From: Bacteroidales bacterium
GTDB taxonomy: Bacteria; Bacteroidota; Bacteroidia; Bacteroidales; UBA932
DNA: 44,607 nt
NCBI GenBank assembly: GCA_017615065.1
Contig: JAGAAY010000041.1
Span: forward strand, 1 to 44,607
Direction: 5' to 3'
Below the pieces are notes generated by a model. That model did no database searches and was not told the origin of the DNA. It saw only the letters and a list, made by a program, of their open reading frames with translations. This document shows positions 1,705 through 25,837 of this stretch, piece by piece. A program made the translations under genes and the position numbers. Each line of letters opens with the position of its first letter. Within the stretch, counting starts at the first letter, position 1.

Positions 1705-1732
1705 CCTCGGCTGGCGGCTAAACCGCTAAAAT

Positions 1733-1821: not shown

Positions 1822-1840
1822 CAAATTGACAAAAAATAAC

Positions 1841-1867: not shown

Positions 1868-2404
1868 ATGAAATCACGATCCGACAGCGAACTGGTTTCT
1901 GCAGTGAAGCTTGGCGATACACGCGCTTTTGACGAACTGTTCATGCGCTGGTATCCCCAGGTGAGGCGGTTCATACTGTCGCTGGTAAAGGACCAGGCGA
2001 TGTCGGACGATCTTGCACAGAATGTATTTCTGAAGGTGTGGAATGCACGGGCGGCGCTGATGCCGGACCAGTCGTTCAGGAATTATCTCTTTGTCCTGTC
2101 CAGGAATGCGGTGCTGGATGTGCTGCGTTCCAAGGGGTACCGGCTCAGGAAGGATGTTCAGGAGCCGCCGGCGGAGGTGGCTTCTTCCGAGCAGTCGTTC
2201 CACCAGGCGGAGTTCAGGGAAACCTACAGCAGGGTCCTGCGGATTGTTTCGGAAATGCCGCCGCAGCGGCAGCAGGTTTTCAAGATGAGCCGGTTCCAGT
2301 CCAAATCGGCACAGGAGATTGCCGATACGATGGGGCTCTCCGTGAGGACGGTGGAAAAGCACCTTGAGCTGGCGCTGAAAGATTTAAGGCAGTCGCTCAA
2401 CTGA
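1868..2404 (+). CDS. ECF-type RNA polymerase sigma factor (FecI-like)
   Basis: The 178-residue protein is a Bacteroidetes-type sigma-70 family (ECF) factor that directs RNA polymerase to a small set of promoters. Sigma region 2 spans about residues 22-88 (DELFMRWYPQVRRF, then DDLAQNVFLKVW and NYLFVLSRNAVLDVLRS). Region 4 spans about 120-175, with the helix-turn-helix SAQEIADTMGLSVRTVEKHL. An upstream in-frame TTG at 1745 would put the start inside the palindrome, so the ATG at 1868 (MKSRSDSELV) downstream of a -7 box is chosen. The next gene is a FecR anti-sigma and then a SusC with an STN domain, the classic arrangement for trans-envelope control of a nutrient-uptake operon. The likely target is the 3485-24242 operon. 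Confidence 0.93.
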   Translation: MKSRSDSELVSAVKLGDTRAFDELFMRWYPQVRRFILSLVKDQAMSDDLAQNVFLKVWNARAALMPDQSFRNYLFVLSRNAVLDVLRSKGYRLRKDVQEPPAEVASSEQSFHQAEFRETYSRVLRIVSEMPPQRQQVFKMSRFQSKSAQEIADTMGLSVRTVEKHLELALKDLRQSLN

Positions 2405-2412
2405 AAAAAATG

Positions 2413-2443
2413 CCGGAAGCATTACGCAATGCCTCCGGTTTTT
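2413..2443 (+). terminator. Intrinsic terminator between sigma and anti-sigma genes
   Basis: CCGGA-A-GCATT pairs with AATGC-C-TCCGG around an ACGC loop, with one internal mismatch, and is followed directly by five T. It begins 9 nt after the sigma-factor stop. It would end or attenuate the sigma transcript before fecR, giving different dosage of sigma and anti-sigma. Confidence 0.8.
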
Positions 2444-2477
2444 CCGTTCTATATAGGTAACACTAAGACCAATCTAT

Positions 2478-3446
2478 ATGGCAATCAATCAAAAATTGCT
2501 GCAGGACTATTTCGACGGGGCATTGTCCGGAGAGGACAATCTCCGTGTGCAACAGTTCCTGGCGGAGAATTGGGACAATCCGGAACTCGTAACTCTTATG
2601 GATTCACAGTTCGATGCCTGCCGTATCGAGCCGTCCGCCCATGACAGGAAAATGCTGAGGGAAGTCCGGAAAAATATCCAAAATTCCAGTCCCCGTTACC
2701 GCGTGTGGATGGCCGCCGCCGCAATAATAGCATTCCTTCTTGCCATTCCCGCAACTATGCAGCTGGGTTATCGCATGCACAGGGAGGCCGCGCCGGTTGA
2801 GTGGCAGGAACTGACGGTATCCAATACGGAAACCGCGGCGCTGGACCTGCCGGACGGAACGCACCTCGTGCTGAATGCCGGTTCCCGCATCACCTGGCCG
2901 AGCCGTTTCACGGGGGACTCCCGTGAAGTGTTTCTGGAAGGGGAAGTCCTTGCACAGGTGGCCAAAGACCCGGAACATCCGTTCATCATCCATTCCGGTG
3001 ATGTAAATGTGAAGGTATACGGCACCACCTTCGAATTCAAATCGTTCCGTAACGAGACCCAGGTGCAGCTAACCTTGATGGAAGGAGCCGTCTCGCTTGA
3101 CGTGCCGTCTTCGGAAGGTAACAGGGAAATAAGCCTGTCGCCCGGCGACATGGCCCTGTACGACCGCGAGGCGGGTGACGTATCCCTTACCAAAGTCTCT
3201 GTAAAACGATTCCCCGATGTGAGGTCGTTCAGTTTCTACAATACGCCCCTGCGCGATATCGTGGCAGAACTGGAGCGCAATTTCGGCCGTCGCATAGTAA
3301 TCGGCGATGCAAAAATTGCCGACAAGCGCTTCCTTGCATTCTTCACGAACGGCGAATCCCTGGACGAAATCCTTTCCCTCCTTGCAAAGAACGGAAAACT
3401 GCGGATTTCCCCGTCGGAGGAAGGCTATTATATATATGGTAGATAA
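2478..3446 (+). CDS. FecR-family anti-sigma factor
   Basis: The 322-residue single-pass inner-membrane protein should hold the adjacent ECF sigma factor in check and receive a signal from the outer-membrane transporter. The N-terminal cytoplasmic part (about 1-70, beginning LLQDYFDGALSGED) resembles anti-sigma domains. A membrane helix lies at about 76-93. The periplasmic FecR domain covers about 115-225 (LDLPDGTHLVLNAGSRITWP; FEVFLEGEV-like segment; HSGDVNVKVYGTTFEF; LMEGAVSL). A C-terminal DUF4974-like STN-interacting domain covers about 250-322 (FSFYNTPLRDIVAELERNFG). Length and order are normal for Bacteroidetes FecR proteins. It sits 38 nt before an STN-bearing SusC, the expected partner. 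The terminator upstream suggests independent or read-through transcription. Confidence 0.95.
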   Translation: MAINQKLLQDYFDGALSGEDNLRVQQFLAENWDNPELVTLMDSQFDACRIEPSAHDRKMLREVRKNIQNSSPRYRVWMAAAAIIAFLLAIPATMQLGYRMHREAAPVEWQELTVSNTETAALDLPDGTHLVLNAGSRITWPSRFTGDSREVFLEGEVLAQVAKDPEHPFIIHSGDVNVKVYGTTFEFKSFRNETQVQLTLMEGAVSLDVPSSEGNREISLSPGDMALYDREAGDVSLTKVSVKRFPDVRSFSFYNTPLRDIVAELERNFGRRIVIGDAKIADKRFLAFFTNGESLDEILSLLAKNGKLRISPSEEGYYIYGR

Positions 3447-3484
3447 CAAACAACTATAAAACACTAAAACCAATTGAAAAAACA

Positions 3485-6400
3485 ATGAGAATCACAGACT
3501 GCCGGCGCCTTCTGCGCGCCATGGTGCTTTCATTGTCCCTGCTGCTCCCGCTGAGCCTCAATGCACAGCGTGTGAGTCTGGAGCTCAAGAACGCCACCGT
3601 CCAGGAGGCGGTAACGGCGCTCCAGAGCCAGGGCAATTACACCATCGTCATCAATTCCGACGAGGTAGACCTGGGTCGGCGGATTTCCGTATCGGCCAAG
3701 GACGCCCCGCTGTCCGAGGTGATCGCCCAGATTTTCGCGGGCCAGAACCTCGATTTTGAAATCAGCGGAAACACCGTTTCCGTTTCCCGCCACAAGGCTT
3801 CAGCCTCCGGCCCCGTGAAGGGGAATCTCAAAGGCACGGTGGCCGATGCCGAGGGAGAAACGCTCATCGGCGCATATGTGATGGTCAAGGGAACCTCCCT
3901 TTATGCCATCACAGACGACAAGGGCGCTTTCAGCATCGACAATATCACATGGCCTGCGGTCCTGTCGGTTTCCTGCATCGGCTACGATGACATGGAAATC
4001 ACGCTGTCCGGCCGCGAGCGCCAGCCCTACACCATCGTCATGCTCAATGAATCCAAGGTTCTTGACGAAGTGGTTGTGGTGGGTTACGGTACCCAGAAAA
4101 AGGTGAACCTCACCGGCGCCGTATCCGTCATCTCCGGAAAGGAGCTCAACGCCCGTCCGGTAACCAACACCGCCATGGCCATCCAGGGTGCCGATCCTTC
4201 CCTGGTTCTCACCACTTCCAGCGGTTCCATCGACGGTGCAAACTACAGCGTCAACATCCGCGGTAAGCTGTCGCTGAACAGCGGTTCCCCGCTTGTGCTG
4301 GTGGACGGTGTGGAAAGCTCGCTTAACCAGGTGAACCCCAACGATATCGAGAACATCTCCATCCTGAAGGACGCTTCGGCCTGCGCCATTTACGGTGCAA
4401 AGGCCTCCGCCGGTGTGATTCTCATCACCACCAAGAGCGGCAGCGCAGGAGAAGCGAAAATCACCTACAACGGCCGTTTCAGCATTTCGGCGAATACCAC
4501 CTCCACGGACTTCATGACCTGCGGTTACGATTATGTGACGCTCTGTAACGACTTCTATAAAACGTATAAAGGATATGGGGCATGGACCTATTCCGACGAA
4601 CAGCTCCAGATGCTCCAGGACCGCCGCAACGACGTAACCGAGAATCCTGCCCGTCCCTGGGTGATTCCGGATGCAACCGGAACATATACATATGTTTATC
4701 TGGGCAACTTCGACTGGTACGGCTATATCTTCAACCGCACCCGTCCGGAAACGGAGCACAATATCACGGTGCGCGGCGGAACCGACAAGGCCCGCTATTA
4801 TGCATCGGCCCGTTATCTGTACCGTGAAGGTCTGTTCGCAGGCGCGGCCCAGGATACTTACAACGGCGTGTCGCTGCGCGCCAAAGTTGATGCCAACATC
4901 ACTCCCTGGCTGAATTATGCCACCAACGTGAGCCTGGAGCGCACCCAGTACGACTGGGGCGGATTCTGGGAGATGGATGGTTCCACCGGCTATGTGAGCC
5001 AGGGTATCATGTGGAACCTCACCCAGAATGTGGGCCCGAACTATGTTCCTTACAACCCTGACGGTACTATCGCGATGGTTCCCGGCTTCATGGCCGATGC
5101 CACGTCCCCGATCTTCTCCGGACGAGGCGGCGTGTTCATGGACGGCCGCAACCACAATGTCAACCTTAATAATTACTGGACCTGGACGAACAGGCTTACC
5201 GCCAACATCGCCAAGGGCCTGAAGTTCATTGCCGATTATACCTACCGCCGCAGGGACCGCAGGGCCAATTTCCGCAGTCTTCCCACAGCTAACAGCTACG
5301 ATAATATCAACAAGAGGCTGTATGTGGGCAACGGACTCACAGGCGGTCTGTTCACAAACGGTTCAGTGTATGACTTTACCCGTGAATACCGCTACTTCCA
5401 GGACGGTAACGTTGTGAACGCCTATTTCTCCTACGACAACACCTTCGGCAAAGACCACCACGTGGCCGCAACCCTGGGTGCCAACTTCGACGACTACCAT
5501 TCATCGAGCATCACCATCCAGCAGAAAGGCTCCCTCAGCGAAACCCTTTCCTATATCAATATGGCAAACGGTGAAATCGAGAAGGCATCCCAGAGCAACT
5601 CCGCCTACAGGACTCTAGGTTTCTTCGGCAGGGCCAATTACGACTATAAGGGACGCTACCTGGTAGAGCTGAGCGGCCGCTATGACGGTTCTTCCCGTTT
5701 CCCCAAGAATCATCGCTGGGGTCTCTTCCCCTCGGCTTCCGCGGGATGGCGAATCAGCGAGGAACCGTTCTGGGCACCAATCAAGCCGTATGTATCGAAC
5801 GCAAAGATCCGCGTGAGCTACGGTACTCTGGGCAACCAGCAGGTGGACAACTACTATTACTGGGAAGAACTCAAGACCGGCCTTCTGAGCGGTTATACCT
5901 TTGACGGTACTTCCAATGCCGGTTATGCATACGTGGATGCACCTGTTTCCAGCAACCTCACTTGGGAAACCGTGATATCCAAGAATATCGGCGTAGACCT
6001 TGGATTCTTCCAGGGCCGGCTTAACCTGAATGCCGATTTCTTCATCCGCGACACCAAGAACATGCTCACCGCCGGAATGGCTCTTCCTTTTGTCTACGGC
6101 GAAGCGGCGCCCAAGGAGAATGCCGCCGACCTCAGGACCAAGGGTTATGAGCTCGCCCTCAGCTGGAAAGACAACATCGTGGTGGCCGGAAAGCCGATGT
6201 ATTATGGCATTACCGCCACCCTGGGCGATTTCGAAACCCGGATCACCCGTTTCGACAACGAGAAGAAACTCCTCAGCCAGAACTATGTGGGCAAGCGCCT
6301 TGGCGATATCTGGGGATATGTGACCGACGGTGTTTTCGCCACCGACGAGGAGGCCGCAGCCTACGAGGCCGAAATCCAGTCCTTCGACACCGTTAACAAG

Positions 6401-7060
6401 GGTATCAAAGGCCAGGTGGCTCCCTGGAACCACCTCTTGGAAGGTGATGTCAAGTACGTGGACCTCAACGGCGACGGAAAGATCAACACCGGTGACAACA
6501 CTCTGGACAACCCCGGCGACCGCAAGGTCATCGGCAATTCCCTCCCGCGTTACAACTATGCCCTTAAGGGAGACCTGAGCTGGTTCGGCTTCGACCTCAG
6601 CATATTCTTCCAGGGCGTCGGAAAACTGGACTGGATGCCTAACGGCAACTGCATCTATTTCTGGGGACCTTATTCCTATCACCGTCCCACCTTCGTGCCC
6701 ACCGACTTCAGGGAGAAGTGCTGGTCGGCCGAAGAGGGTGCCGATAACAGCAATATCATCTACCCGCGCCAGAGAGGCCGTATCGCCACAACCAGTAATC
6801 TTGTGACATCGGACTTCTACCTCCAGAACGCCGCATACCTGCGTCTTAAGAACCTCACATTCGGATATACGATTCCTCTCAAGACCAAGGTCATAGAGAA
6901 AGCCCGCGTCTATTTCTCGGGCGAGAACCTCTTCTATCTGTCGCCTCTCACAAAGGCCACTAAATACATCGACCCGGAAGTTGCAACCACATCCATCAGC
7001 GAAGACTGCACCTATCCGTATTCCAAGACATTCTCTTTCGGCGTTGACATAACATTCTGA
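3485..7060 (+). CDS. SusC/RagA-family TonB-dependent transporter with N-terminal STN signalling domain
   Basis: This 1191-residue outer-membrane beta-barrel would import the substrate with TonB energy and pair with the SusD lid encoded next. After a signal peptide (about 1-28, ending LNAQ) comes an STN domain (about 30-100), the part that touches FecR in signalling transporters. A carboxypeptidase-regulatory-like domain follows (about 113-190, GTVADAEGETLIGAYV), then the TonB-box/SusC signature LDEVVVVGYGTQKK (193-206), plug and barrel ending in F. The STN extension is absent from the second SusC of this window, which marks this one as the FecR-linked transducer. It starts the long operon; downstream spacings are 15 nt or less or overlapping. 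Substrate cannot be read from SusC itself. Confidence 0.96.
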   Translation: MRITDCRRLLRAMVLSLSLLLPLSLNAQRVSLELKNATVQEAVTALQSQGNYTIVINSDEVDLGRRISVSAKDAPLSEVIAQIFAGQNLDFEISGNTVSVSRHKASASGPVKGNLKGTVADAEGETLIGAYVMVKGTSLYAITDDKGAFSIDNITWPAVLSVSCIGYDDMEITLSGRERQPYTIVMLNESKVLDEVVVVGYGTQKKVNLTGAVSVISGKELNARPVTNTAMAIQGADPSLVLTTSSGSIDGANYSVNIRGKLSLNSGSPLVLVDGVESSLNQVNPNDIENISILKDASACAIYGAKASAGVILITTKSGSAGEAKITYNGRFSISANTTSTDFMTCGYDYVTLCNDFYKTYKGYGAWTYSDEQLQMLQDRRNDVTENPARPWVIPDATGTYTYVYLGNFDWYGYIFNRTRPETEHNITVRGGTDKARYYASARYLYREGLFAGAAQDTYNGVSLRAKVDANITPWLNYATNVSLERTQYDWGGFWEMDGSTGYVSQGIMWNLTQNVGPNYVPYNPDGTIAMVPGFMADATSPIFSGRGGVFMDGRNHNVNLNNYWTWTNRLTANIAKGLKFIADYTYRRRDRRANFRSLPTANSYDNINKRLYVGNGLTGGLFTNGSVYDFTREYRYFQDGNVVNAYFSYDNTFGKDHHVAATLGANFDDYHSSSITIQQKGSLSETLSYINMANGEIEKASQSNSAYRTLGFFGRANYDYKGRYLVELSGRYDGSSRFPKNHRWGLFPSASAGWRISEEPFWAPIKPYVSNAKIRVSYGTLGNQQVDNYYYWEELKTGLLSGYTFDGTSNAGYAYVDAPVSSNLTWETVISKNIGVDLGFFQGRLNLNADFFIRDTKNMLTAGMALPFVYGEAAPKENAADLRTKGYELALSWKDNIVVAGKPMYYGITATLGDFETRITRFDNEKKLLSQNYVGKRLGDIWGYVTDGVFATDEEAAAYEAEIQSFDTVNKGIKGQVAPWNHLLEGDVKYVDLNGDGKINTGDNTLDNPGDRKVIGNSLPRYNYALKGDLSWFGFDLSIFFQGVGKLDWMPNGNCIYFWGPYSYHRPTFVPTDFREKCWSAEEGADNSNIIYPRQRGRIATTSNLVTSDFYLQNAAYLRLKNLTFGYTIPLKTKVIEKARVYFSGENLFYLSPLTKATKYIDPEVATTSISEDCTYPYSKTFSFGVDITF

Positions 7061-7065
7061 CGATT

Positions 7066-8922
7066 ATGAAAAAGATTATCATACCGATTGCGATAATGAC
7101 AGCCGCCCTGGCCCTGTCTTCATGCGAGGACTTCCTGACCAAGGCGCCCGAGACCACCCTGTCGCCGGGGACCTATTTCTCTTCCGAGCCCGAACTGGAC
7201 CTGTGGGTGAACAAACTCTACAACGACATCCTTCCCACTCCGGGAACCCTGGCAGAACTGCAGGCCGATGACAACGGCTCGTCCAGCTCGCTTTCCGCCA
7301 TCCAGAAGGGAACGCGTACTCCGTCGTCCACGTCCTGGAGTGCCGATACATGGAAGCCGCTCAGGAATATCAACTATCTCCTGGAGAACAACAAGTGCGC
7401 AGATGCCAATGTGAAGGCCCGTTATGACGGCGCCGCCTATTTCTTCCGCGCATGGTTCTATTTCGATATGCTCCGCCAGTACGGCGACATTCCCTGGTAC
7501 GACCACGTCATCGGCTCCACCGATACCGAAGATCTGAACAAGCCCCGCGATCCCCGCGGATATGTGGCCCTGATGATTCTCCAGGACCTGGACAAGGCAT
7601 ATGAACTGCTGCCGGCCAAGTGGCCTTCGAACCCGGTATATCATGTGTCCAGAGATGCCGCCCTGGCTCTCAAGTCCCGCGTGGCGCTGTTTGAGGGAAC
7701 ATTCCGGAAGTATCATGCCGGGACCGCTTTCGTCCCCGTGGACGAGCAGACTTTCGGCGAAGTGACCATTTCTTCCGATTATTTCCTCCGTCAGGCTGCC
7801 GATGCGGCCGGCCGGCTTCTTGGCACCCGCAAGCTTTACACCGGAAATGTCCGCGGCTTCTCAACGAATGCAGCAGAGGCCTCATACCGCGAGTATTTCA
7901 TCCTTGAGGACGCCGAAACCGACGAGACCATCTTCTCTCGCCGCTACAGTGTGGACGTGCTGGTGCGTCACGGCATCCAGTTCGACTTCAAGAACCATCG
8001 GCAGAGCGCAAGCGCCCGCCTGGTGAACCACTATCTCCAGAGCGACGGCACCCCTATCCAGGAGCGTGCAGGCTGGGAGTCCCTGAGCTACTACGATGTG
8101 TTCCAGAACCGTGATCCCCGCATGGCCCAGACCCTTCATGGCCCGGGATTCCTGAAGGCCGATATCGACGATGTTACCAAACTCCATGAAAAGGAGCAGC
8201 TCTCCTGGGAGCGCACCTTCAATGGCTACCGTATAATCAAATACATTTCCGACACCAGTCACGAAACCGCCACTACATCCACAACCGACTACCCGCTGAT
8301 CCGTTATGCGGAAGTCCTTCTCAACTATGCAGAGGCTAAGGCTGAACTGGGTGAACTCACGGCCGAAGACCTTGCCGCCACGGTGAATGTCATCCGTGCC
8401 CGTGTGGGAATGCCGGGACTCACCGCTGTTCCTACAACTCCAGACGCTCTTATGACACAGTATTATCCCCACGCAAAAGGCGCCCAGAAGGCTGCAATCC
8501 TTGAAATCCGCCGCGAACGTGCAGTGGAACTCATCTGCGAAGGCTTCCGCCAGTGGGATCTGCTCCGTTGGGGCGAGGGCGCACTCCTCACACCCAAGGC
8601 AACAGCCGGTTTCCAGGGCATATACATTGCCGAGAATGAAGTTGGTACCGATATCGACCTGGACAGGGACGGCACCATGGACCTGTATGTATACTCGGGT
8701 GCCAAGGGAACCACTGCGGCTCCTTCCACCAACCAGATACAGCTGGGCAGCGGCTACACGCTTTCCAACGGAACATATGGCTACCTCACTTATTGGGCTG
8801 CCGAAGATTATGTTTGGGATGAAGGCCGAGATTATCTCTGGCCCATCCCTGCCGATCAGCGTAAGCTTACGGATTTTGCACTTACTCAGAATCCGGGCTG
8901 GGATGACGGTCTAAGCCAATAA
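7066..8922 (+). CDS. SusD/RagB-family substrate-binding lipoprotein
   Basis: The 618-residue surface lipoprotein forms the lid of the SusC channel and captures substrate. The lipobox LALSSC places the lipidated cysteine at residue 20, followed by acidic EDF, a common surface-export context. Typical SusD features are visible: EDFLTKAPETTLSPGTYFSS at the N-terminus, the TPR-like helices (YFFRAWFYFDMLRQYGDIPW, ALALKSRVALFEGTFRK), and the C-terminal signature IRRERAVELICEGFRQWDLLRWGEG. It starts 5 nt after the SusC stop, so the pair is co-transcribed. Confidence 0.96.
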   Translation: MKKIIIPIAIMTAALALSSCEDFLTKAPETTLSPGTYFSSEPELDLWVNKLYNDILPTPGTLAELQADDNGSSSSLSAIQKGTRTPSSTSWSADTWKPLRNINYLLENNKCADANVKARYDGAAYFFRAWFYFDMLRQYGDIPWYDHVIGSTDTEDLNKPRDPRGYVALMILQDLDKAYELLPAKWPSNPVYHVSRDAALALKSRVALFEGTFRKYHAGTAFVPVDEQTFGEVTISSDYFLRQAADAAGRLLGTRKLYTGNVRGFSTNAAEASYREYFILEDAETDETIFSRRYSVDVLVRHGIQFDFKNHRQSASARLVNHYLQSDGTPIQERAGWESLSYYDVFQNRDPRMAQTLHGPGFLKADIDDVTKLHEKEQLSWERTFNGYRIIKYISDTSHETATTSTTDYPLIRYAEVLLNYAEAKAELGELTAEDLAATVNVIRARVGMPGLTAVPTTPDALMTQYYPHAKGAQKAAILEIRRERAVELICEGFRQWDLLRWGEGALLTPKATAGFQGIYIAENEVGTDIDLDRDGTMDLYVYSGAKGTTAAPSTNQIQLGSGYTLSNGTYGYLTYWAAEDYVWDEGRDYLWPIPADQRKLTDFALTQNPGWDDGLSQ

Positions 8923-8925
8923 AAT

Positions 8926-11361: not shown

Positions 11362-11376
11362 TTAACCTTATATAAT

Positions 11377-13056: not shown

Positions 13057-13068
13057 GAATCTGTAGCT

Positions 13069-15069: not shown

Positions 15070-16028
15070 AACGTTTTCTGATAGTAAGTTTCCTGCTTCT
15101 TTCCCTTTCCTGCCTCGCTTGCGGGAAAGGGAAGGAGGTGAGGATCCTGTACTGGAACATCCAGAACGGGATGTGGCACGACCAGGGCAACAACTACGAT
15201 AATTTCGTGAACTTTGTCAAGGAAGTGGATCCGGATATCTGCGTCTGGTGCGAAGCCGAGTCGCGTTACGTTACCGACACCTGCACAAAGATGAAGATTC
15301 CCGAGGACCAGTATCTTCCATGGAACTGGGACGTGCTTGCGGCCCGGTACGGGCACAAGTATGTGCTCATTTCCGGTAAACGGGATACGTTCCCTCAGGT
15401 GATAACATCCAAGTATCCGCTGAGGATCGTCAAACGCATTACCGGCAATGGGGACGACATTATCGTAGCCCACGGGGCCGGCTGGGCCAAGGTCGACCTG
15501 GGAAAGGGACAGGAACTGAACCTGGTAACAGTTCATACCTGGCCGCAGAAATATGCATATAAGGCCGAAGACCGGGATGCATCGGCAGCGGAGCATGGCG
15601 GGGATCTTTTCCGCGCCACGGAAATCCGCTATATCTGCGAAGAGACCATCGGCACAGTTCCAGGGGCGCAGAATCAGTTCTGGCTGATGTGCGGCGATTT
15701 CAACTCCATTTCCTCCGTGGACAACGCCGAGTATAAGAAGGATCTTTCCGACAAGGCGTTCCTGGTGCATGACTATGTCCGTGGCAATACTCCTTATATC
15801 GACGTTATCGAGAGGATGTATCCCGGGCAGTTTTTCAAGAGCACTTTCTCCGGAAGGCGCATCGATATGGTGTATGTTACACCTGCGCTTTACGATAAAA
15901 TTACTTTCGCAACGCATCTGTATGACGGCTTTGCGGAGGCATCGAGGGATCCGCGCGGAAAGGCGGTGAACAATTTCTGCCATCCGTCCGACCATTATCC
16001 GATTTTGGTAAAATTTAAAGTAAAATGA
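15066..16028 (+). CDS. Endonuclease/exonuclease/phosphatase (EEP)-fold lipoprotein
   Basis: The 320-residue product belongs to the metal-dependent EEP superfamily, which includes inositol-polyphosphate 5-phosphatases, sphingomyelinases and DNase I. A lipobox (SCLAC, cysteine near 19) predicts membrane anchoring outside the cytoplasm. Conserved EEP positions are present in order: Asn in YWNIQNG (31), Glu in VWCEAES (63), His in VHTWPQ, Asp/Asn in CGDFNS, Asp in RRIDMVYV, and the terminal HPSDHYP (Asp309/His310). All catalytic elements look intact. It overlaps both neighbours by 4 nt (ATGA), so it is embedded in the operon and translated with it. Between a phosphodiester glycosidase and a histidine phosphatase, a phosphoester-cleaving role on the imported substrate is more attractive than nucleic-acid degradation, but a surface nuclease is not excluded. 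Confidence 0.88.
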   Translation: MKRFLIVSFLLLSLSCLACGKGKEVRILYWNIQNGMWHDQGNNYDNFVNFVKEVDPDICVWCEAESRYVTDTCTKMKIPEDQYLPWNWDVLAARYGHKYVLISGKRDTFPQVITSKYPLRIVKRITGNGDDIIVAHGAGWAKVDLGKGQELNLVTVHTWPQKYAYKAEDRDASAAEHGGDLFRATEIRYICEETIGTVPGAQNQFWLMCGDFNSISSVDNAEYKKDLSDKAFLVHDYVRGNTPYIDVIERMYPGQFFKSTFSGRRIDMVYVTPALYDKITFATHLYDGFAEASRDPRGKAVNNFCHPSDHYPILVKFKVK

Positions 16029-19000: not shown

Positions 19001-19513
19001 GATACCGGCCGCGTTTCCGGCATCGTTTCATCGGCAAACCGCTATACGCACGTCAAAAATGCCGTGAATAATGGCGACGTCCACTATAGCGGGAACGGCA
19101 CTTTCCGTCCGGCCAACATCACCTGTATCGCCGGCGAAGGTACCGAACTTGAGGACTGCGTGAACAAGGGCGACCTGATCGCTCCGGACTGCGCATCGGC
19201 CGCGGGTGTGGTTTGCCTTATCAGCGCCGCCTCGATTAAGATTACCCGCTGCAGCAGCATCGGCGCAAGCATAGTTTGCAAGGGATTCGATACTGCGAAC
19301 AGCAAGTCGACATATGCAGGTGCCCTGTACGGCAGCGTGGCTTCGGCCGCCACCGCTACCGCCGCCTTCAGCGGCTGCTCCGTGAGCGGAAAGGTGGGAA
19401 ACAGCGTAGACGCCCTGCTAACCCTTACTGCGGAGAATTACTTCCCCTTCGTTGGTGCCGCAAACGCAAACTGTTCGAGTTTGAATACAACCAATATAAC
19501 ATTTGCTGAATAA
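16025..19513 (+). CDS. Giant lipoprotein: type-A beta-helix, SGNH hydrolase (DUF4886), type-B beta-helix
   Basis: The 1162-residue lipoprotein (LLTGC, cysteine at 19) has a Pro/Asp/Glu-rich linker (about 24-48), a type-A module (about 50-440), an SGNH-hydrolase-like DUF4886 domain (about 450-735), an acidic Gly-rich linker (MEGEGGEGGGEEPP) and a type-B module (about 757-1162). The SGNH domain has the nucleophile block FFIGNSFT (Ser464), YYGG (block II), IQEHTGRE, and RDGYHMD, giving Asp655 and His658 for the DxxH motif. It is therefore probably an active esterase or deacylase/deacetylase. A separate DUF4886 protein is encoded at 25837-26673. The gene overlaps the EEP gene by 4 nt. An enzyme set between two beta-helices suggests that the helices bind or position a polymer for it. 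The function is inferred from family folds only. Confidence 0.85.
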   Translation: MKNIFLTLAAVCSILLTGCKKEPPVEPDPDNGQGQEQEQPDTPPVPEGKGIRNAEEFIAFATAVNAGESTAEWENEEGWINLLADIDFSGVTSWTPVGNAVAPWADYNPVVTSGHAFTGKFDGNAHHIKNLVLVDDVKAAGAHFGIFGYLGKDAIVQNFVIDATCSLTVTSSVSHSAGMIAGVLYDATVRDVTSYAPMTYKGGATGYFHMALIGGLYANETGCTVDSVHNRGDILAENTANLNAGATGLHVAGIVGFSNAGTANNIISACNNYGAMTSQAGRTAGILGAANKNTTITQCENRGNQINTMPKTDGGRLGNICCYVNSGSSMSYCKNYGNLISTTSGRVGGLVSLPNEGNYSNNENYGEVISDSDYRGVFFGYVTQAAAFSGGKASGRVGKYNNGEYVYDLYSESSKVRYLGKDGSSGKATFTDVVIDIATGTTPIDPDPDINVQAAFRIFFIGNSFTKDAVEHLPGIVHAAGLNDIQMVHMYYGGRTIPEYNDGWETSTDYHCYVCNPGQTSWTDISGKSLAVIASTGKWDVVTIQEHTGRELAWGWTAAEKSAVQGLVGKVMDAQEAAGGNPKLYYILSQAYHNLGKAQNVTKPFTNTDEMWTVIAAQGKSAVEECGFDGVISTGAMLQNLRTSGLNNEMGLTRDGYHMDYGIARYGASCTVFETVIGPFNGDVKLDNNTYRTSGDSPVDGSWTTAITDKRAPIALKAARYAIAKPYEVTDMEGEGGEGGGEEPPVVEGENISISSAADLVAFATRVNSGDEAAIKATVTVTADIDCASITSWTPIGNCTLTTWAHNNAVVTGNLFAGKFDGGNHSIRNLKMSFSPSDENAAWGFFGGIGSGAEVKNIVFDASCSLHIETGKAGVFGMLAGLVLDADVDNVKNYGPITGGGTSALANNNAAGRVAVGGIIGWVHAATRDLTVSNLYNAGPIGTSTAIFSRGGNAGNGANGVMLGGLVGFSSNTNNTKVQTLSNLVNDADIYTDTGRVSGIVSSANRYTHVKNAVNNGDVHYSGNGTFRPANITCIAGEGTELEDCVNKGDLIAPDCASAAGVVCLISAASIKITRCSSIGASIVCKGFDTANSKSTYAGALYGSVASAATATAAFSGCSVSGKVGNSVDALLTLTAENYFPFVGAANANCSSLNTTNITFAE

Positions 19514-19525
19514 CCTGATTTATTT

Positions 19526-19660
19526 ATGAAGAAAGATTATCTAACACCACTGCTCGAAGCGGTGAAAATTGATTCTGAAAGTGTCTTTCTGTATTCGGGA
19601 CTGAAAGACATGAACAACGTCATTATTTTTCCCGAGGATGATTTGGATGATGATGTTTAA
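19526..19660 (+). CDS. 44-residue small protein with acidic tail, inside the operon
   Basis: An ATG at 19526 opens 44 codons ending in TAA at 19660, one base before the next gene's ATG (19662). The start MKKDYLTPLLEAVKIDSES resembles short Bacteroidales proteins of the type MKK-x-Y-x-x-P-x-(I/L)-E-x-(V/I) that are often found beside secreted-protein genes (recalled pattern, not searched). The C-terminus is strongly acidic (FPEDDLDDDV). No signal peptide or membrane segment is seen. It starts 12 nt after the preceding stop, and its end abuts the following start, so translational coupling is plausible. The function is unknown; a peptide-like or regulatory product is possible. Confidence 0.6.
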   Translation: MKKDYLTPLLEAVKIDSESVFLYSGLKDMNNVIIFPEDDLDDDV

Positions 19661-19661
19661 A

Positions 19662-22600
19662 ATGAAGACAGCCATGAAGACAAGAATTACACTCATCACC
19701 CTGGCCATAGCGGCCCTCGCGGTTTCCTGCATGAAGGAATCCAATCCTGAAGTAACACCTGCGGCAAATAAAATAACGGTTCGCGTTACCATTCCTGAAG
19801 ACACCAAGGTTTCCATGACCGAGGCTTCCGACCATAAGTCCATGGGCCTTGCCTGGGAATCTACCGATAAAATCTCCATCAACGGAGAGGAATTTACCAT
19901 TGACAGCGGCTTCACCGCCCATGAGGCAGAATTCACTGGTACGGCGCCCTCTAGTAGCTCTCCTTATACCATCATTTATCCCGGAAAGTATACCGATGCC
20001 GCCGCTTTCAACGCACGTTCTTATGCGGGCCAGGAGCAGACAGAGAATAAGTCTACTGCTCATTTGGAGTACAACGCGATGCTCTCCGGCGTTTCCGAGT
20101 ATGAAGCACCGAAGTTCGATCCGGATTGGGCTGCCGCCAAAGGCGGTTCGCTCGTTCAGAACGCCGTGGTCCAGATGAGGCTGCAACTCCCCGACGGGGC
20201 TTCCAACCCCACGTCCGTGAGCCTTGTTGCCACCAATGACATTTTCCCCACCACAAACGCAGGCACGCCTCTCACGAATGAGATGACACTTTCCCTCAAG
20301 AACGTGACTCTTCCCACGAACCGTATTCTTGAAGCCTACATGATGGTTTCCGCAGCAGGCGTAACCATTGCGGATGGTGAAGTCCTCACCGTTGCCGTGG
20401 TAACTCCGGACGCGACCTATGTTCGCGAACTCACGCTTTCCGCCCAGACCTGGACCGGCGGCGGCCAGTACACCCTGCAGCTAAAGAACTTCAACGTTCA
20501 CAACTTCGATATCAATAATGTGGCCGATCTGGAGATGTTCTGCGACGGCGTAAACAGCGGCGACATCCTCTGGCAAACCGTCCACGCGAACCTGATGGCC
20601 GACCTCGACTGCTCCGGCATTATCTCATGGACGCCTATTGGAAACGGTACGTTCACTGGAAGCAATTACTCTGGAAATGCATTCAAGGGAGTATTTGATG
20701 GAGGAGGACATACGCTAAGAAATTTCTCACTGGTAGGAACTACACCTGCCGATCAGGGCGTATTCGGATTCTTCGGAATACTGGTAAACGCTACTGTAAA
20801 GGATTTGACCTTTGGCGCTGAGTCTAGCGACACGGGAAAATTCACTGTATCTATGACCGGTGGCACCGGAGATGCTGGTGTTGTGGCTGGCGCGGCCATT
20901 GGATCGACGCTTGAGAATATTACCAATTACCTTCCTATGACTTGTAACGGTAGTGATACCAATAGCAAGAGGGCGACCTGTGCGATGGTTGGTTATGTCT
21001 ATGGGAACAAGACCTTCGGCATGTCTACAATCAGTGGCCTTGTCAACCGCGGAACAATGACGCATCATTGGGGATCCAATACGACCGTAGGAGCCAATGG
21101 AGTCCATGGAGCAGGTATTGTTGGATATGTAAATGGCTCCGGCACCAGCACGCTTCGCAATCATATCCTAAACTGCAAGAACTATGGCGATATGACATCC
21201 GAAATCGGCCGTACAGCCGGTATCGCAGGTGCCATTTATGCCTATACCATTATCGAGGGGTGCGAGAATCTGGGACATCAGGAGAACTCCTGTGACAACG
21301 GACGCCTCGGTGGTATCACAAGTATCGTTCAGGGTATGTACTCCGAGATGAAGGATTGCATCAATCGCGGCGATATCATTGCCTCCGGAAGCACAAATAC
21401 ACAACTTGGCGGTCTGGCATGTATGCTGAGCAAGGGGTCTGCCGACACAGAGGATGGCTTTGTCAAAGTTAGTGGAGGCGGTAACTACGGTAAGATCATC
21501 GGAGACCGGGTGAATAATTATCACGGAACACTGATTGGCAATTTCTCAAGTTTTGCAAGTGTAAACGATGTCACAGCTGGTGGAGCTTATGGCACCTATA
21601 ACGGAGGTGATTACCAATACACTGTTCTTACCGCGGAAAACTATATGAGTTATATCGGGACAAGAGCGGCTGCCAACGAATCAAAAATTACCAATATACA
21701 CTTTGATGCCTGGGACGGCTATCCGGCGGCCAACGAGACGCTCATTTCCAGTGCTGCCGAACTTGTTGCTTTTGCAGCCGAGGTAAACGCTGGCCACTTC
21801 GCGGCTACCGATGTCGCCAAGCTTACAGCCGACATCGACTGCTCGTCCATCACTGACTGGACACCGATTGGTAACGGCTCGATGTCCAGCTGGAGTGCGA
21901 CAGCTCTGACGTTCACCGACCCCGAGAAACTCTTTGTTGGCACCTTTGATGGCCAGAATCATTCTATCAAGAACCTGGCGATGAACTTCTCATCTTCAGG
22001 TAGTTATGATGCTTACGGATTCTTCGGAGGAATTGGTGATGGCGCTGTTGTTAAGAATCTTTCTTTTGATTCCTCTTGTTCTATGACGGTATCGGCTTCT
22101 TACGGTTCAGCATTTGGAATGCTGGCGGGTATCGTCACGGGTGCGGCGATTGACAATGTCAAAAATTACGCCCCCATTACCGGTGGAGGTACATCCTCGC
22201 TTGGCAACAACAATGCTGCCGGACGTACTATGGTTGGGGGAATAATTGGTGAGGTTCATCCTGGTTCCGTACAGGCTAACATAAGCAACCTCCATAATTA
22301 TGCTGATATTGGTTCATCCGGAACAATTTTCTCTCGGGGTAATAATGCAGGTAACGGTGCAAACGGTTTTGAAGTTGGTGGTATTGCCGGTTTCTCGACA
22401 ACGTCAACCACAAGCCTTCTTGCAAACTTCTCATCATGTGTCAATGATGGCAACATTTACACCGATGCAGGCCGCAGTTCGGGCATTGTGGCTGGATGTA
22501 ACCGCTATACAAAACTCTTGGACTGCACAAATAATGGTGATGTCGTTTCTTCAGTCAGCGGCACATTCCGTTTGGGGAACATTACCTGTATTGCCGGTGA

Positions 22601-22970
22601 AGGATCCATACTTGATGGTTGTGTCAATACCGGAGATTTGACGGCTCTCAACTGCGTTTCAGTGGCCGGTGTTGTTTGCCTTGTTAACCACGAATCAGTC
22701 CAGATTAAGAGCTGTGCCAGCCTTGGCGCTACGATACTGGGCAAGAGCGTGAATATCAGTGGCAACCAGACTTACAATGGCGTTCTGTTTGGCTATTGCA
22801 ATAATGCTGCTACATTCAACGATTGCTCGGTTAGCGGTAAGATTGGTACCAGTACCAGTAGTGAGGATCAGGTTACTCTTACGGCCGAGAACTATTTCCA
22901 GTATGTAGGTCAGATTGGCGCTAATGCAACTAATATCAACGCCACCTGCATCACTTTCGCTTCAGAATAA
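19662..22970 (+). CDS. Fimbrillin-like giant lipoprotein with type-A and type-B beta-helix modules
   Basis: The start at 19662 (MKTAMKTRITLITL) gives 1102 residues and follows the small gene by one base; an in-frame ATG at 19638 would overlap that gene and spoil the signal peptide, so it is not used. The lipobox ends LAVSC (cysteine near 23). A fimbrillin-like region (about 35-280; GLAWESTDKISINGEEF, SPYTIIYPG) precedes a type-A module (about 286-680) and a type-B module (about 690-1102, ending ENYFQYVGQIGAN). No catalytic motif is seen. Codon choice in the two modules (from about 20640 and again from about 21950) is more A/T-rich than in the fimbrillin part and in the neighbouring genes, suggesting a mosaic origin. 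The stop abuts the next start directly (zero spacing). Confidence 0.82.
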   Translation: MKTAMKTRITLITLAIAALAVSCMKESNPEVTPAANKITVRVTIPEDTKVSMTEASDHKSMGLAWESTDKISINGEEFTIDSGFTAHEAEFTGTAPSSSSPYTIIYPGKYTDAAAFNARSYAGQEQTENKSTAHLEYNAMLSGVSEYEAPKFDPDWAAAKGGSLVQNAVVQMRLQLPDGASNPTSVSLVATNDIFPTTNAGTPLTNEMTLSLKNVTLPTNRILEAYMMVSAAGVTIADGEVLTVAVVTPDATYVRELTLSAQTWTGGGQYTLQLKNFNVHNFDINNVADLEMFCDGVNSGDILWQTVHANLMADLDCSGIISWTPIGNGTFTGSNYSGNAFKGVFDGGGHTLRNFSLVGTTPADQGVFGFFGILVNATVKDLTFGAESSDTGKFTVSMTGGTGDAGVVAGAAIGSTLENITNYLPMTCNGSDTNSKRATCAMVGYVYGNKTFGMSTISGLVNRGTMTHHWGSNTTVGANGVHGAGIVGYVNGSGTSTLRNHILNCKNYGDMTSEIGRTAGIAGAIYAYTIIEGCENLGHQENSCDNGRLGGITSIVQGMYSEMKDCINRGDIIASGSTNTQLGGLACMLSKGSADTEDGFVKVSGGGNYGKIIGDRVNNYHGTLIGNFSSFASVNDVTAGGAYGTYNGGDYQYTVLTAENYMSYIGTRAAANESKITNIHFDAWDGYPAANETLISSAAELVAFAAEVNAGHFAATDVAKLTADIDCSSITDWTPIGNGSMSSWSATALTFTDPEKLFVGTFDGQNHSIKNLAMNFSSSGSYDAYGFFGGIGDGAVVKNLSFDSSCSMTVSASYGSAFGMLAGIVTGAAIDNVKNYAPITGGGTSSLGNNNAAGRTMVGGIIGEVHPGSVQANISNLHNYADIGSSGTIFSRGNNAGNGANGFEVGGIAGFSTTSTTSLLANFSSCVNDGNIYTDAGRSSGIVAGCNRYTKLLDCTNNGDVVSSVSGTFRLGNITCIAGEGSILDGCVNTGDLTALNCVSVAGVVCLVNHESVQIKSCASLGATILGKSVNISGNQTYNGVLFGYCNNAATFNDCSVSGKIGTSTSSEDQVTLTAENYFQYVGQIGANATNINATCITFASE

Positions 22971-24242
22971 ATGAAACGGATCATTTCCATACTCTTTTTG
23001 CTTCTTGGTGCTCTGGCGCTTTATGGCCAGAGTGCCAGGGAGCTTATTCGGGAGGATCCTAACAAGGCGGGGGGAGTGTACTACATGTACCCTTTCCACG
23101 AGCATCACGTGACGCCGCCTCCGAGGGGGTACAAGCCGGTTTATCTGAGCCATTATGGCCGTCACGGGGCTCGTTATCTGCTCAACGATACCCAGTATGA
23201 GCGGAGCATGAATGTGCTCCGCGATGCCCATGAGGCGGGCGTGCTCACCGATGTGGGGGAGAGAATCTGGCAGGAGGCATCGGCCTATTTTGAAGAGACC
23301 TGCAAGTACCGCTCCGGCGATCTCACGCCGCTGGGCTGGGACCAGCATTACCGCATCGCCCAGGAGATTTACAACGACAACAGGGCCCTGTTCCGCCGTC
23401 ATCCTTCCGTTGAGGCCGGCGCAACGCAGATTCCGCGCTGTATAGTGTCGATGACGGCCTTCCTCCAGGGGCTGGCCGCCAAGGACCGTAAGCTGGAAGT
23501 ATATGCCAATGCCTCCAAGGCCGATCTGGACGAGATCTGCCCGCATTCAAGCGACAATCCCCGCCGGGAGAATGTACAGATGGAGGGTGGCCGATACGCG
23601 AGAATCAACCCCTGGGGTGGCAAGCTGGGCGAGTTTATCGACGCCCGGGTGGACTACAGGGCCATTGCCGCGCGCATCTTCACCGATCCGGATTTCGCGA
23701 AGCCTTACCGCGGCGTCCGTGCCTTCGTTACCGACTTCTACGACCTGGTGTTCAATATGCAGTGCACCCCCACGGACCGCAGCCTGATGTGGTTCTTCAC
23801 CCCGGAAGAGTGCTATTCCCTCTGGGAGGTGAACAACTATATACATTATATGGAGTCTGCGCCCCCGGCAACCACCCGCGACCTTCCTGCCCTATGGAAT
23901 CTTGTGGCCGATGCCGACAGTGCCCTGGCCTCGGGAAAACCCGCCGTGCGCCTGCGTTTCGGCCACGACACGGTGTTCCTGGGCCTGATGTCCATGGTGG
24001 GTGCCGATGGCTTTGACATAGTGCCCACATCGGCCGACGGCATCTCGGACACCTGGCTGAACTTCCGCGCCCCCATGGCCGCCACGCTCTATTTCCTGTT
24101 CTGCGTCAACAAACAGGGACGCGTTCTGGTGAAAATGGTGGTCAACGGCGACGAGGCCGCCCTGCCCCTCACCCCCGTCACCGGCCCCTGGTACGACTGG
24201 GAGGATCTCAAGGCGCTGATAAACACTCGTTTTCCTCAATAA
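22971..24242 (+). CDS. Histidine-type phosphatase, MINPP/phytase-like
   Basis: The 423-residue product resembles branch-2 histidine acid phosphatases (multiple inositol-polyphosphate phosphatase/phytase group), which remove phosphate through a phosphohistidine intermediate. A cleavable signal peptide (about 1-20, ALALYGQS) without a lipobox suggests the periplasm. The nucleophile motif HYGRHGARYL places His65 in RHGxR. The proton-donor motif appears as FGHDTVF (His332/Asp333). Length matches bacterial MINPP-like enzymes. It is the last gene of the operon, starting exactly at the preceding stop, and is followed by a strong hairpin. Periplasmic removal of phosphate from an imported phosphorylated fragment would fit the locus. 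Other phosphomonoesters remain possible substrates. Confidence 0.9.
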   Translation: MKRIISILFLLLGALALYGQSARELIREDPNKAGGVYYMYPFHEHHVTPPPRGYKPVYLSHYGRHGARYLLNDTQYERSMNVLRDAHEAGVLTDVGERIWQEASAYFEETCKYRSGDLTPLGWDQHYRIAQEIYNDNRALFRRHPSVEAGATQIPRCIVSMTAFLQGLAAKDRKLEVYANASKADLDEICPHSSDNPRRENVQMEGGRYARINPWGGKLGEFIDARVDYRAIAARIFTDPDFAKPYRGVRAFVTDFYDLVFNMQCTPTDRSLMWFFTPEECYSLWEVNNYIHYMESAPPATTRDLPALWNLVADADSALASGKPAVRLRFGHDTVFLGLMSMVGADGFDIVPTSADGISDTWLNFRAPMAATLYFLFCVNKQGRVLVKMVVNGDEAALPLTPVTGPWYDWEDLKALINTRFPQ

Positions 24243-24268: not shown

Positions 24269-24357
24269 ACAATGAGTTTATTGTTTCCCGGTGCAAAATT
24301 TTTTGCACCGGGAAACTGTTATTTCGCTGATACACAACGTGTTATCCGCCAGGAAAA
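24269..24357 (+). repeat. 89-nt direct repeat, copy 2
   Basis: This is the second copy of the element at 1733-1821, about 92% identical by hand alignment and in the same orientation. It starts 27 nt after the phosphatase stop and ends 54 nt before the second sigma-factor ATG. Conservation continues some 40 nt past the hairpin, which would not be needed for termination alone. Confidence 0.85.
24283..24316 (+). terminator. Palindromic hairpin ending the long operon
   Basis: The 34 bases are identical to 1747-1780: GTTTCCCGGTGCAAAA, a two-base centre, and TTTTGCACCGGGAAAC. It lies 41 nt after the last gene of the operon, nearly the same distance as the groEL copy from its gene. A terminator role is likely; it may also be a regulatory structure for the sigma gene that follows. 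Confidence 0.65.
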
Positions 24358-24411
24358 ATTCGGCAAAATTTTTGTTAACAATTCTGCGGCTTGTGCGTCA
24401 TATTATCGGCA

Positions 24412-25805: not shown

Positions 25806-25837
25806 AGAGCACCTGCGGTCTGCAGGTGCTCTTTTTT
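25806..25837 (+). terminator. Intrinsic terminator of the second sigma operon
   Basis: A perfect 11-bp stem, AGAGCACCTGC with GCAGGTGCTCT, closes a 5-nt loop and runs into six T. It lies 37 nt after the DUF4252 stop and reaches the stop of the convergent DUF4886 gene, so it may serve both strands. Confidence 0.92.

What the first reader, a model, noticed from the sequence alone, without database searches (positions are those of the whole stretch)
1868..24242. Sus-like uptake operon that appears dedicated to a phosphorylated substrate
A FecI/FecR pair and an STN-SusC/SusD pair head an operon with spacings of 0-38 nt. It carries a phosphodiester-glycosidase domain (8926 gene), an EEP phosphatase/phosphodiesterase (15066), an embedded SGNH hydrolase (16025) and a MINPP/phytase-like histidine phosphatase (22971). 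No glycoside hydrolase or lyase is seen. These families together suggest sequential removal of sugar-1-phosphate caps, acyl groups and phosphates at the surface and in the periplasm. Candidate substrates are phosphoglycans, teichoic-acid-like polymers, inositol phosphates or GPI/phosphoinositide head groups. The enzyme families are established; the pathway is inference.
Basis: partly seen in the sequence, partly recalled or inferred. Interest (0 to 1): 0.8.

Follow-up and report, generated by a model that had tools for sequence, protein, structure and literature searches.

The report
Uptake operon for phosphate-linked wall polymers
A gut and rumen Bacteroidales bacterium carries a conserved sugar-uptake operon whose enzymes belong to families that cut phosphate links instead of ordinary sugar-sugar bonds, and its relatives suggest that the food is a phosphate-rich cell-wall polymer such as teichoic acid from Gram-positive bacteria.

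Summary
The operon is real (1868-24242): FecI, FecR, STN-SusC, SusD, then a BACON-GLUG-NAGPA lipoprotein, two GLUG lipoproteins, an EEP enzyme, a GLUG-SGNH-GLUG lipoprotein, a double-GLUG lipoprotein and a MINPP-like histidine phosphatase. Catalytic motifs are intact; predicted folds of the NAGPA and EEP proteins match their families. Pfam finds no glycoside hydrolase or lyase in it.

Relatives support dedication to a phosphorylated substrate. In 72 NAGPA loci against 36 hand-picked NAGPA-free SusC/D loci: EEP 35 v 1, SGNH 37 v 1, histidine phosphatase 13 v 0, GDPD 17 v 1 (related loci, not independent). NAGPA and MINPP share one ORF 15 times in 14 genomes.

New here: relatives add a glycerophosphodiesterase, an organophosphate-type antiporter (not significantly enriched) and a propeller remotely related to phage receptor-binding proteins, one of which needs teichoic-acid GlcNAc. 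That propeller occurs in 4 of 101 congeneric genomes, each time in such an operon, and in 1 of 393 genomes sampled over the order. I infer a teichoic-acid-like polymer, not phytate; the window lacks those three genes. The layout resembles Flavobacterium PusCD systems. No activity was tested.

The parts
1868..2404 (+). FecI-type ECF sigma factor
   Evidence: Pfam Sigma70_r2 8e-13, Sigma70_r4_2 1e-14 (run on the longer ORF from 1745); ATG at 1868
2478..3446 (+). FecR anti-sigma factor
   Evidence: Pfam FecR 6e-15, FecR_C 5e-12
3485..7060 (+). STN-domain SusC-like TonB-dependent transporter
   Evidence: Pfam STN, Plug, barrel; TIGR04056 835.9 bits, over cut-off
7066..8922 (+). SusD-like surface lipoprotein
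   Evidence: Pfam SusD_RagB 7e-44; lipobox LSSC
8926..11361 (+). Lipoprotein: BACON, GLUG-type segment (about residues 130-395), C-terminal NAGPA phosphodiester glycosidase domain
   Evidence: Pfam BACON and NAGPA over cut-off; AlphaFold model mean pLDDT 79; Foldseek best 5h3k and 6ozd, then 3ohg and vertebrate NAGPA 6pkg, 6pku; DGR and DGGG motifs invariant or nearly so
11377..13056 (+). BACON-like/GLUG lipoprotein (GLUGa)
   Evidence: BACON 22.9 bits, just under cut-off 25; lipobox; similar to other GLUG segments
13069..15069 (+). GLUG lipoprotein (GLUGb)
   Evidence: no Pfam hit; lipobox; C-terminal segment about 55% identical to those of the 16025 and 19638 genes
15066..16028 (+). EEP-superfamily phosphodiesterase/phosphatase, probably periplasmic
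   Evidence: PF03372 over cut-off; WN, E, GDFN, RID, SDH motifs; AlphaFold pLDDT 85.8, Foldseek to EEP enzymes; no lipobox in the window, but 3 of 4 relatives checked have one
16025..19513 (+). Lipoprotein GLUG - SGNH hydrolase (DUF4886, residues 457-694) - GLUG
   Evidence: PF16227 98.1 bits; GNSFT at 462 and DGYH at 655; lipobox
19526..19660 (+). 44-codon micro-ORF in the longest gap of the operon
   Evidence: translation; ORFs of 41 and 44 codons lie at the same place in G034 and G106
19638..22970 (+). Double-GLUG lipoprotein; likely start 19674
   Evidence: lipobox AVSC; two GLUG segments; no Pfam hit
22971..24242 (+). MINPP-like histidine phosphatase, branch 2, probably periplasmic
   Evidence: PF00328 over cut-off; RHGAR at 64 and HD at 332, no lipobox; PDB relatives 7r5y 4e-39, 4fdt 3e-28
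1747..1780 (.). hairpin of a dispersed repeat just before the operon
   Evidence: terminator-like stem; repeat has 51 matches in the genome, opposite-strand matches of the palindrome included
24283..24316 (.). hairpin of the same repeat just after the operon
   Evidence: 92% identical over 89 nt to the first copy

Best explanation
The operon takes up and dismantles a phosphodiester-rich glycoconjugate, most likely a teichoic-acid-like wall polymer of Gram-positive bacteria. Proposed order, all inferred from families and signal sequences: GLUG and BACON lipoproteins and SusD hold the polymer at the cell surface. The NAGPA lipoprotein hydrolyses sugar-1-phosphate diester links, for example the GlcNAc-1-phosphate link that joins wall teichoic acid to peptidoglycan. 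The SGNH domain removes acyl or aminoacyl esters. SusC imports the fragments. The EEP enzyme, probably periplasmic, cuts remaining phosphodiesters, and the MINPP-like phosphatase removes the exposed phosphomonoesters. FecI/FecR and the STN domain of SusC switch the operon on when substrate arrives. Some relatives carry a glycerophosphodiesterase for the diester step and an organophosphate-type antiporter that would import the product.
For: Intact families, motifs and folds. Synteny in G034 and, from SusC on, in G106. Against 36 NAGPA-free SusC/D loci of the genus: EEP 35 of 72 v 1, SGNH 37 v 1, histidine phosphatase 13 v 0, GDPD 17 v 1, phage-type propeller 9 v 0. 15 NAGPA-MINPP fusion ORFs in 14 genomes, both domain orders. 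A second class of loci (full-length SusC 41-43% identical) has NAGPA with a NAGPA-MINPP fusion and, in part, EEP, GDSL and an antiporter. L167 runs SusC-SusD-NAGPA-GLUGa-propeller-GDPD-antiporter-GDSL nearly without gaps. PF21311 propeller: 4 of 101 genomes of the genus, all four hits inside these operons; in G011:C77 it adjoins MINPP and EEP genes 72% and 77% identical to the window's. 1 of 393 genomes sampled over the order has it. Its only phage matches among 50,697 records are tail fibre proteins of three Bacillus subtilis phages; PHROGs hits are tail proteins. Phage phi11, whose receptor-binding protein has a five-bladed propeller, needs GlcNAc on wall teichoic acid (PMC4901313, passages). 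The antiporter scores better with GlpT than UhpT models.
Against: The window operon has no GDPD, antiporter or propeller; most loci that do are only about 39-63% identical in NAGPA, and the own genome was not searched for GDPD or antiporter. The propeller match is partial (about 70-150 of 255 positions) and remote: best PDB sequence E 6e-4, phage hits E 6e-4 over 25% of the protein. GlcNAc in the phi11 propeller is modelled, not solved. The antiporter is below all curated cut-offs and in one of three cases scores slightly better with the UhpC model. OPA (12 v 2) and S1/P1 (5 v 1) were not significantly enriched. The 72 loci share descent, the controls were picked by hand, and several profiles were seeded from the counted loci. 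MINPP relatives are common in the genus (86 of 101 genomes); MINPP-EEP proximity was not above a crude null (6 v mean 3.1, maximum 8). FecR and STN are both missing in 14 of 48 loci. No activity, induction or growth data.
Confidence: 0.5

Rival explanations
1. Same machinery, but the substrate is a eukaryotic phosphoglycan or lipid: yeast or fungal phosphomannan, protist phosphoglycans, GPI anchors or phosphoinositides from plant, fungal or ciliate cells in the gut.
For: NAGPA acts on sugar-1-phosphate diesters, which also occur in such glycans (recalled knowledge); MINPP and EEP superfamilies include inositol-phosphate enzymes (recalled); GDPD plus an organophosphate antiporter would also suit glycerophosphoinositol. 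Many named relatives come from ruminant stomachs and hindgut (record titles).
Against: No mannosidase or other glycosidase was found by Pfam in the operon. The propeller's phage relatives are tail proteins, the named ones of Bacillus subtilis phages. Inositol is not a glycoside, so NAGPA has no obvious role on phosphoinositides.
Confidence: 0.2
2. A general phosphate-scavenging system like the PusCD loci of Flavobacterium: the aim is phosphate, the organic part is incidental.
For: PusCD loci pair SusCD-like proteins with phosphomonoesterases and phosphodiesterases instead of CAZymes (PMC8115612, passages), the same layout as here. Some of their abundant lipoproteins have weak homology to polygalacturonases, loosely like the beta-rich GLUG proteins.
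Against: The window operon starts with FecI/FecR and an STN-SusC, a substrate-sensing type of switch, though 14 of 48 relatives lack it. SGNH is not phosphate-releasing and NAGPA only exposes a phosphate. Orthology to PusC/PusD was not tested.
Confidence: 0.17
3. A phytate or inositol-phosphate uptake locus.
For: The last gene is related over its length to BtMinpp, reported as an InsP6 phosphatase (PMC3969271, abstract start in listing).
Against: Phytate has no glycosidic or acyl bonds for NAGPA and SGNH to cut. Of the window's four enzymes MINPP is the one least often seen in the related loci, 13 of 72, although the 10 kb flanks cut off its place in the window's layout.
Confidence: 0.04
4. 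An ordinary glycan locus whose depolymerase is a cryptic enzyme in the GLUG proteins; phosphodiester and phosphate groups are only decorations.
For: GLUG segments dominate the coding sequence and the one modelled is beta-rich, a class of fold that some lyases and hydrolases share (recalled).
Against: GLUG segments are also fused to NAGPA and SGNH enzymes, as binding modules would be; no lyase or hydrolase family matches.
Confidence: 0.09

Closest known systems
Phosphate utilisation systems (PusCD) of Flavobacterium johnsoniae (PMC8115612, passages)
   Same: SusCD-like pair beside phosphomonoesterases and phosphodiesterases, no CAZymes, extra lipoproteins
   Different: Here FecI/FecR and STN-SusC, NAGPA and SGNH are present, MINPP and EEP stand in for PhoA-type enzymes; low-phosphate induction unknown; PusD orthology not tested
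Polysaccharide utilisation loci with ECF sigma/anti-sigma control
   Same: FecI-FecR-SusC-SusD head, accessory lipoproteins, enzymes downstream
   Different: No glycoside hydrolase or polysaccharide lyase by Pfam
Wall teichoic acid hydrolases GlpQ and PhoD of Bacillus subtilis (named in passages of PMC11488536; otherwise recalled)
   Same: GDPD-type enzyme in relatives is of the GlpQ kind; a calcineurin-like phosphoesterase, the PhoD kind, occurs in L159
   Different: The window operon has EEP and NAGPA instead and is coupled to SusCD
Vertebrate NAGPA (uncovering enzyme) and Bacteroides ovatus 3ohg
   Same: Same fold of the C-terminal domain
   Different: 11-13% identity in the Foldseek alignments; fused to BACON and GLUG segments; activity unknown
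BtMinpp of Bacteroides thetaiotaomicron (4fdt) and 7r5y
   Same: Homology over the length; RHG and HD motifs in the window protein
   Different: Sits in a SusCD operon; relatives in the genus are fused to NAGPA

Membership tests
Polysaccharide utilisation locus (PUL) | adjacent SusC and SusD genes | tested here: met
Polysaccharide utilisation locus (PUL) | carbohydrate-active glycoside hydrolase or lyase in the operon | tested here: not met
   Pfam on the 11 large genes of the operon; dbCAN not available
Phosphate utilisation system (PusCD type) | SusCD-like pair with phosphomonoesterase and phosphodiesterase families | tested here: met
Phosphate utilisation system (PusCD type) | induction by phosphate depletion | not testable with these tools
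   no expression data
Phosphate utilisation system (PusCD type) | orthology to known PusC/PusD proteins | not tested
   PusD sequences were not fetched
NAGPA phosphodiester glycosidase | PF09992 domain and fold | tested here: met
   41.3 bits v cut-off 25; Foldseek to 3ohg, 6pkg, 6pku
NAGPA phosphodiester glycosidase | sugar-1-phosphate diester hydrolysis | not testable with these tools
   needs assay
EEP superfamily | fold and catalytic motifs | tested here: met
MINPP / branch-2 histidine phosphatase | RHGxR and HD motifs, homology to BtMinpp | tested here: met
MINPP / branch-2 histidine phosphatase | phytate hydrolysis | not testable with these tools
   needs assay
Teichoic-acid-degrading system | glycerophosphodiesterase (GlpQ-like) in the operon | tested here: not met
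   absent from the window operon by Pfam; present in 17 of 72 related loci
Teichoic-acid-degrading system | teichoic-acid-type propeller in the operon | tested here: not met
   absent from the window operon; no PF21311 match in the window's incomplete genome; present in 9 of 72 related loci
Teichoic-acid-degrading system | activity on teichoic acid | not testable with these tools
   needs assay

The most novel reading that the evidence does not exclude
These operons are dedicated teichoic-acid utilisation loci: rumen and gut Bacteroidales eat the anionic wall polymers of Gram-positive neighbours, using NAGPA enzymes to cut the GlcNAc-1-phosphate bond that anchors wall teichoic acid to peptidoglycan, and in some a propeller related to that of teichoic-acid-binding phages to hold it. 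It would be a class of SusCD system for phosphate-linked glycopolymers with no glycoside hydrolase in the operon.
Probability: 0.35. Interest if true: 0.82.

Novelty: new variant of a known kind. Interest (0 to 1): 0.62.

Why it matters
Teichoic acids are a large share of Gram-positive cell walls (recalled), and how a gut community recycles them is little described as far as I know. In the listings of the searches made here (open-licence papers only, no preprints) I saw no paper on a Bacteroidales SusCD locus for teichoic acid or with NAGPA. If right, these loci would be a source of enzymes for phosphodiester-linked glycans, suggest a function for NAGPA proteins in Bacteroidales, and extend SusCD uptake to phosphate-linked polymers in the gut. 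Even if the polymer is another one, the NAGPA-MINPP fusions tie two enzyme families into one degradative step.

Tried and rejected
Phytate as the main substrate: rejected because NAGPA and SGNH would have nothing to cut. Chance clustering: rejected through synteny and the control loci. Degenerate active sites: rejected by motif for EEP, MINPP and SGNH and by fold for NAGPA and EEP; the exact NAGPA catalytic residues were not mapped.

Led nowhere: searches for reports of NAGPA in Bacteroides loci and of uncovering-enzyme catalytic residues; Rfam (only a tRNA); VIA-align 2 (library absent); plasmid search with the NAGPA protein (one weak hit, to a dockerin protein, over residues 131-336); G462:C21, the single PF21311 hit in the order sample, has none of my 10 families in the 20 kb around it, not even my own propeller profile.

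Weaknesses of the counts. In one search I entered 150 NAGPA and 150 MINPP rows, both from lists cut by the tool, and 90 of 108 EEP rows (18 short or weak rows at the end were left out); its null is crude (uniform placement in 1.8 Mb). Two more fusions seen later (L121; one search shows a matching one in G084) are not in the 15. One search covered 50 of 72 loci and was used only to tie loci to genomes. The 40 control regions were picked by hand from 119 SusD rows of six genomes, mostly high-scoring ones; 4 held NAGPA and were set apart. The GDPD, OPA, propeller and S1/P1 profiles were seeded mostly from the counted loci. Flanks of 10 kb cut off the place of MINPP, so 13 of 72 is a lower bound. 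ORFs in fetched loci came from my own codon-usage script, which missed an EEP gene in G069 that one search shows. Lipoboxes were found by a simple pattern.
Full report
What is there. The window is contig C102 of a 1.70 Mb, 68% complete draft genome of a Bacteroidales genus with more than 100 species genomes held. Between 1868 and 24242, on one strand, lie FecI, FecR, STN-SusC, SusD, a BACON-GLUG-NAGPA protein, two GLUG proteins, an EEP enzyme, a GLUG-SGNH(DUF4886)-GLUG protein, a double-GLUG protein and a branch-2 histidine phosphatase. Junctions run from a 4 nt overlap to 38 nt, except 73 nt between FecI and FecR and 124 nt before 19638; the latter gap holds a 44-codon micro-ORF. GLUG-type segments occur seven times in five proteins; the C-terminal ones of the 13069, 16025 and 19638 genes are about 55% identical to each other, so they look like duplicates within the operon. 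The GLUG name rests on the Pfam Glug motif in related proteins of the same genome; the window proteins do not hit that model.

Enzymes look active. EEP keeps the WN, E, GDFN, RID and SDH motifs, invariant or nearly so in 22 sequences; its model (pLDDT 85.8) matches EEP enzymes. The NAGPA protein's model (pLDDT 79) matches 5h3k, 6ozd, B. ovatus 3ohg and vertebrate NAGPA structures. The phosphatase has RHGAR and HD and aligns over its length with 7r5y and BtMinpp. The SGNH domain has GNSFT and DGYH. In the window SusD, NAGPA, GLUG and SGNH proteins have lipoboxes, EEP and the phosphatase do not; three of four EEP relatives checked do have a lipobox-like match, so the site of EEP is open. Surface capture and first cuts, then periplasmic dephosphorylation, is inference.

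Relatives in the genus. A search with the NAGPA domain found window-type relatives in 6 of 61 genomes, own genome included. G034:C34 repeats the order, with FecI 67%, FecR 59%, SusC 84%, SusD 81%, NAGPA 74%, GLUGa 70%, GLUGb 75%, EEP 78%, GLUG-SGNH 75% and phosphatase 72% identity; its counterpart of the 19638 gene is only 28% identical, and it has an extra EEP-domain gene before SusC. G106:C1 keeps SusC to phosphatase, also with an extra EEP-domain gene, but shows no FecI, FecR or STN. G005, G062 and G069 lack the phosphatase in the stretch seen. In 101 genomes of the genus NAGPA occurs in 73, MINPP relatives in 86 and EEP relatives in 47. Among the rows entered, 15 NAGPA-MINPP pairs share one ORF, in 14 genomes: 12 with MINPP first, 3 with NAGPA first; one is on C41 of the window's own genome. 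Within 15 kb of a NAGPA row lay 19 of 150 MINPP rows (null mean 5.5, maximum 16) and 9 of 90 EEP rows (null mean 3.0, maximum 8); EEP rows near a MINPP row were 6 of 90 (null mean 3.1, maximum 8), not above chance.

Other classes. Loci with a full-length SusC 41-43% identical to the window's (fragments up to 53%) combine SusC-SusD, GLUG or BT_3987-type lipoproteins, NAGPA and a NAGPA-MINPP fusion; some add EEP (L109, L110, L118), GDSL, a further histidine phosphatase (L109, L110) or an antiporter (L118). On C85 of the own genome a third kind, SusC 26% identical, pairs NAGPA with EEP and GDSL. So the enzymes recur beside different SusC/D lineages.

Named relatives and control. A scan of species genomes gave 72 loci, by their titles from Bacteroidales or Bacteroidia without a genus name, many from ruminant samples. 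With profiles built here they were compared with 40 SusD-centred regions picked by hand from 119 SusD rows of six genomes of the genus; 4 held NAGPA and were set apart. Present in 72 NAGPA loci against 36 controls: EEP 35 v 1, SGNH4886 37 v 1, histidine phosphatase 13 v 0, GDPD 17 v 1, propeller 9 v 0, antiporter 12 v 2, S1/P1 nuclease 5 v 1; the last two are not significant. Of 40 loci with at least 6 kb before and 7 kb after NAGPA, 34 have one or more of EEP, GDPD, histidine phosphatase or S1/P1. Of the six without (L137, L158, L159, L188, L191, L194), L159 has a calcineurin-like phosphoesterase right after the propeller; the unassigned genes scanned in L137 and L188 gave none. FecR is found in 33 and an STN-like start in 34 of 48 loci with a full SusC and 2 kb before it; 14 have neither. 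Shared ancestry, hand-picked controls and seeded profiles mean that the p-values are not to be taken literally.

The clue to the substrate. Unassigned genes of the relatives fall into families: GDPD with DUF4996; an MFS transporter nearest the organophosphate antiporters (TIGR00881, 1e-65 to 2e-70; GlpT model better than UhpT in three of three, UhpC slightly better than GlpT in one of three; all below curated cut-offs); S1/P1 nuclease; and a protein with PF21311, the five-bladed propeller platform of phage receptor-binding proteins, over the cut-off in four of four scanned with Pfam (L156, L158, L162, L179). In L167 they follow directly: SusC, SusD, NAGPA, GLUGa (931 aa), propeller, GDPD, antiporter, GDSL. 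PF21311 is found in 4 of 101 genomes of the genus, and by coordinates all four hits lie in these operons: G095:C9, G071:C83 and G119:C18 are L161, L158 and L188, and G011:C77 carries it beside MINPP and EEP genes 72% and 77% identical to the window's. Of 393 genomes sampled over the order, three of them of the genus, 1 has it. The closest PDB sequence is a Gp17 at E 6e-4, its organism not shown; the only phage records, 3 of 50,697, are Bacillus subtilis phages, at E 6e-4 over a quarter of the protein; PHROGs hits are mainly tail proteins. Phage phi11, whose receptor-binding protein has a five-bladed propeller, needs GlcNAc on wall teichoic acid; the GlcNAc site is modelled, not solved (PMC4901313, passages). 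A propeller lectin of Streptomyces umbrella toxins, not shown to be of the same family, binds a teichuronic-acid-like polymer attached to wall teichoic acid (PMC13274773, passages). Together, a sugar-1-phosphate diester glycosidase, acyl esterases, a glycerophosphodiesterase, an organophosphate-type antiporter and this propeller point to teichoic-acid-like polymers. That wall teichoic acid hangs on peptidoglycan through GlcNAc-1-phosphate on MurNAc C6 is recalled; it is chemically the bond type for which NAGPA is named. The window lacks GDPD, antiporter and propeller, so for the window itself the claim is by kinship.

Comparison with the known. The best precedent is PusCD in Flavobacterium: SusCD-like pairs with phosphatases and diesterases, without CAZymes, induced by low phosphate (PMC8115612, passages). 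Whether the present operon responds to phosphate need or to substrate is open; its FecI/FecR-STN head speaks for substrate, but not all relatives have that head. I file it as PUL-like and PUS-like, a new variant, not as a proven member of either.

Verdict.

Noticed in passing
window 31844-43912: A second, separate SusC/D locus: CotH, GH144 (PF10091), SusC, SusD, laminin-G protein, GH144 and GH3, probably for beta-1,2-glucan (substrate and GH144 name recalled). Its SusD has relatives in 14 of 101 genomes of the genus, own included.
   Followed up: partly
window 1725-1835 and 24269-24357; other contigs of G000: A dispersed repeat of about 90 bp with a near-perfect hairpin flanks the operon on both sides; 51 matches in the genome, opposite-strand matches of the palindrome included, also on both sides of the NAGPA-MINPP fusion gene on C41.
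   Followed up: partly
window 19526-19660 and gaps in G034, G106, G005, G011: Short ORFs of 39-52 codons, four of seven with Y-x-T-P near the start, sit in operon gaps before GLUG or EEP-fusion genes. Function unknown.
   Followed up: partly
G000:C41, G016, G028, G095, G097 and others: NAGPA and MINPP fused in one protein in both domain orders, 15 ORFs in 14 genomes among the rows entered.
   Followed up: partly
window 24391-25768: A second ECF sigma factor gene, a small gene without Pfam hit and a DUF4252 gene directly after the operon.
   Followed up: no
window 25837-26673: A stand-alone DUF4886 SGNH gene on the minus strand close to the operon end.
   Followed up: no
L018:5135-7516, L022:10438-13686: Large proteins (793 and 1082 aa) with a C-terminal EEP domain and an N-terminal part without Pfam family, encoded in the related operons.
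   Followed up: partly
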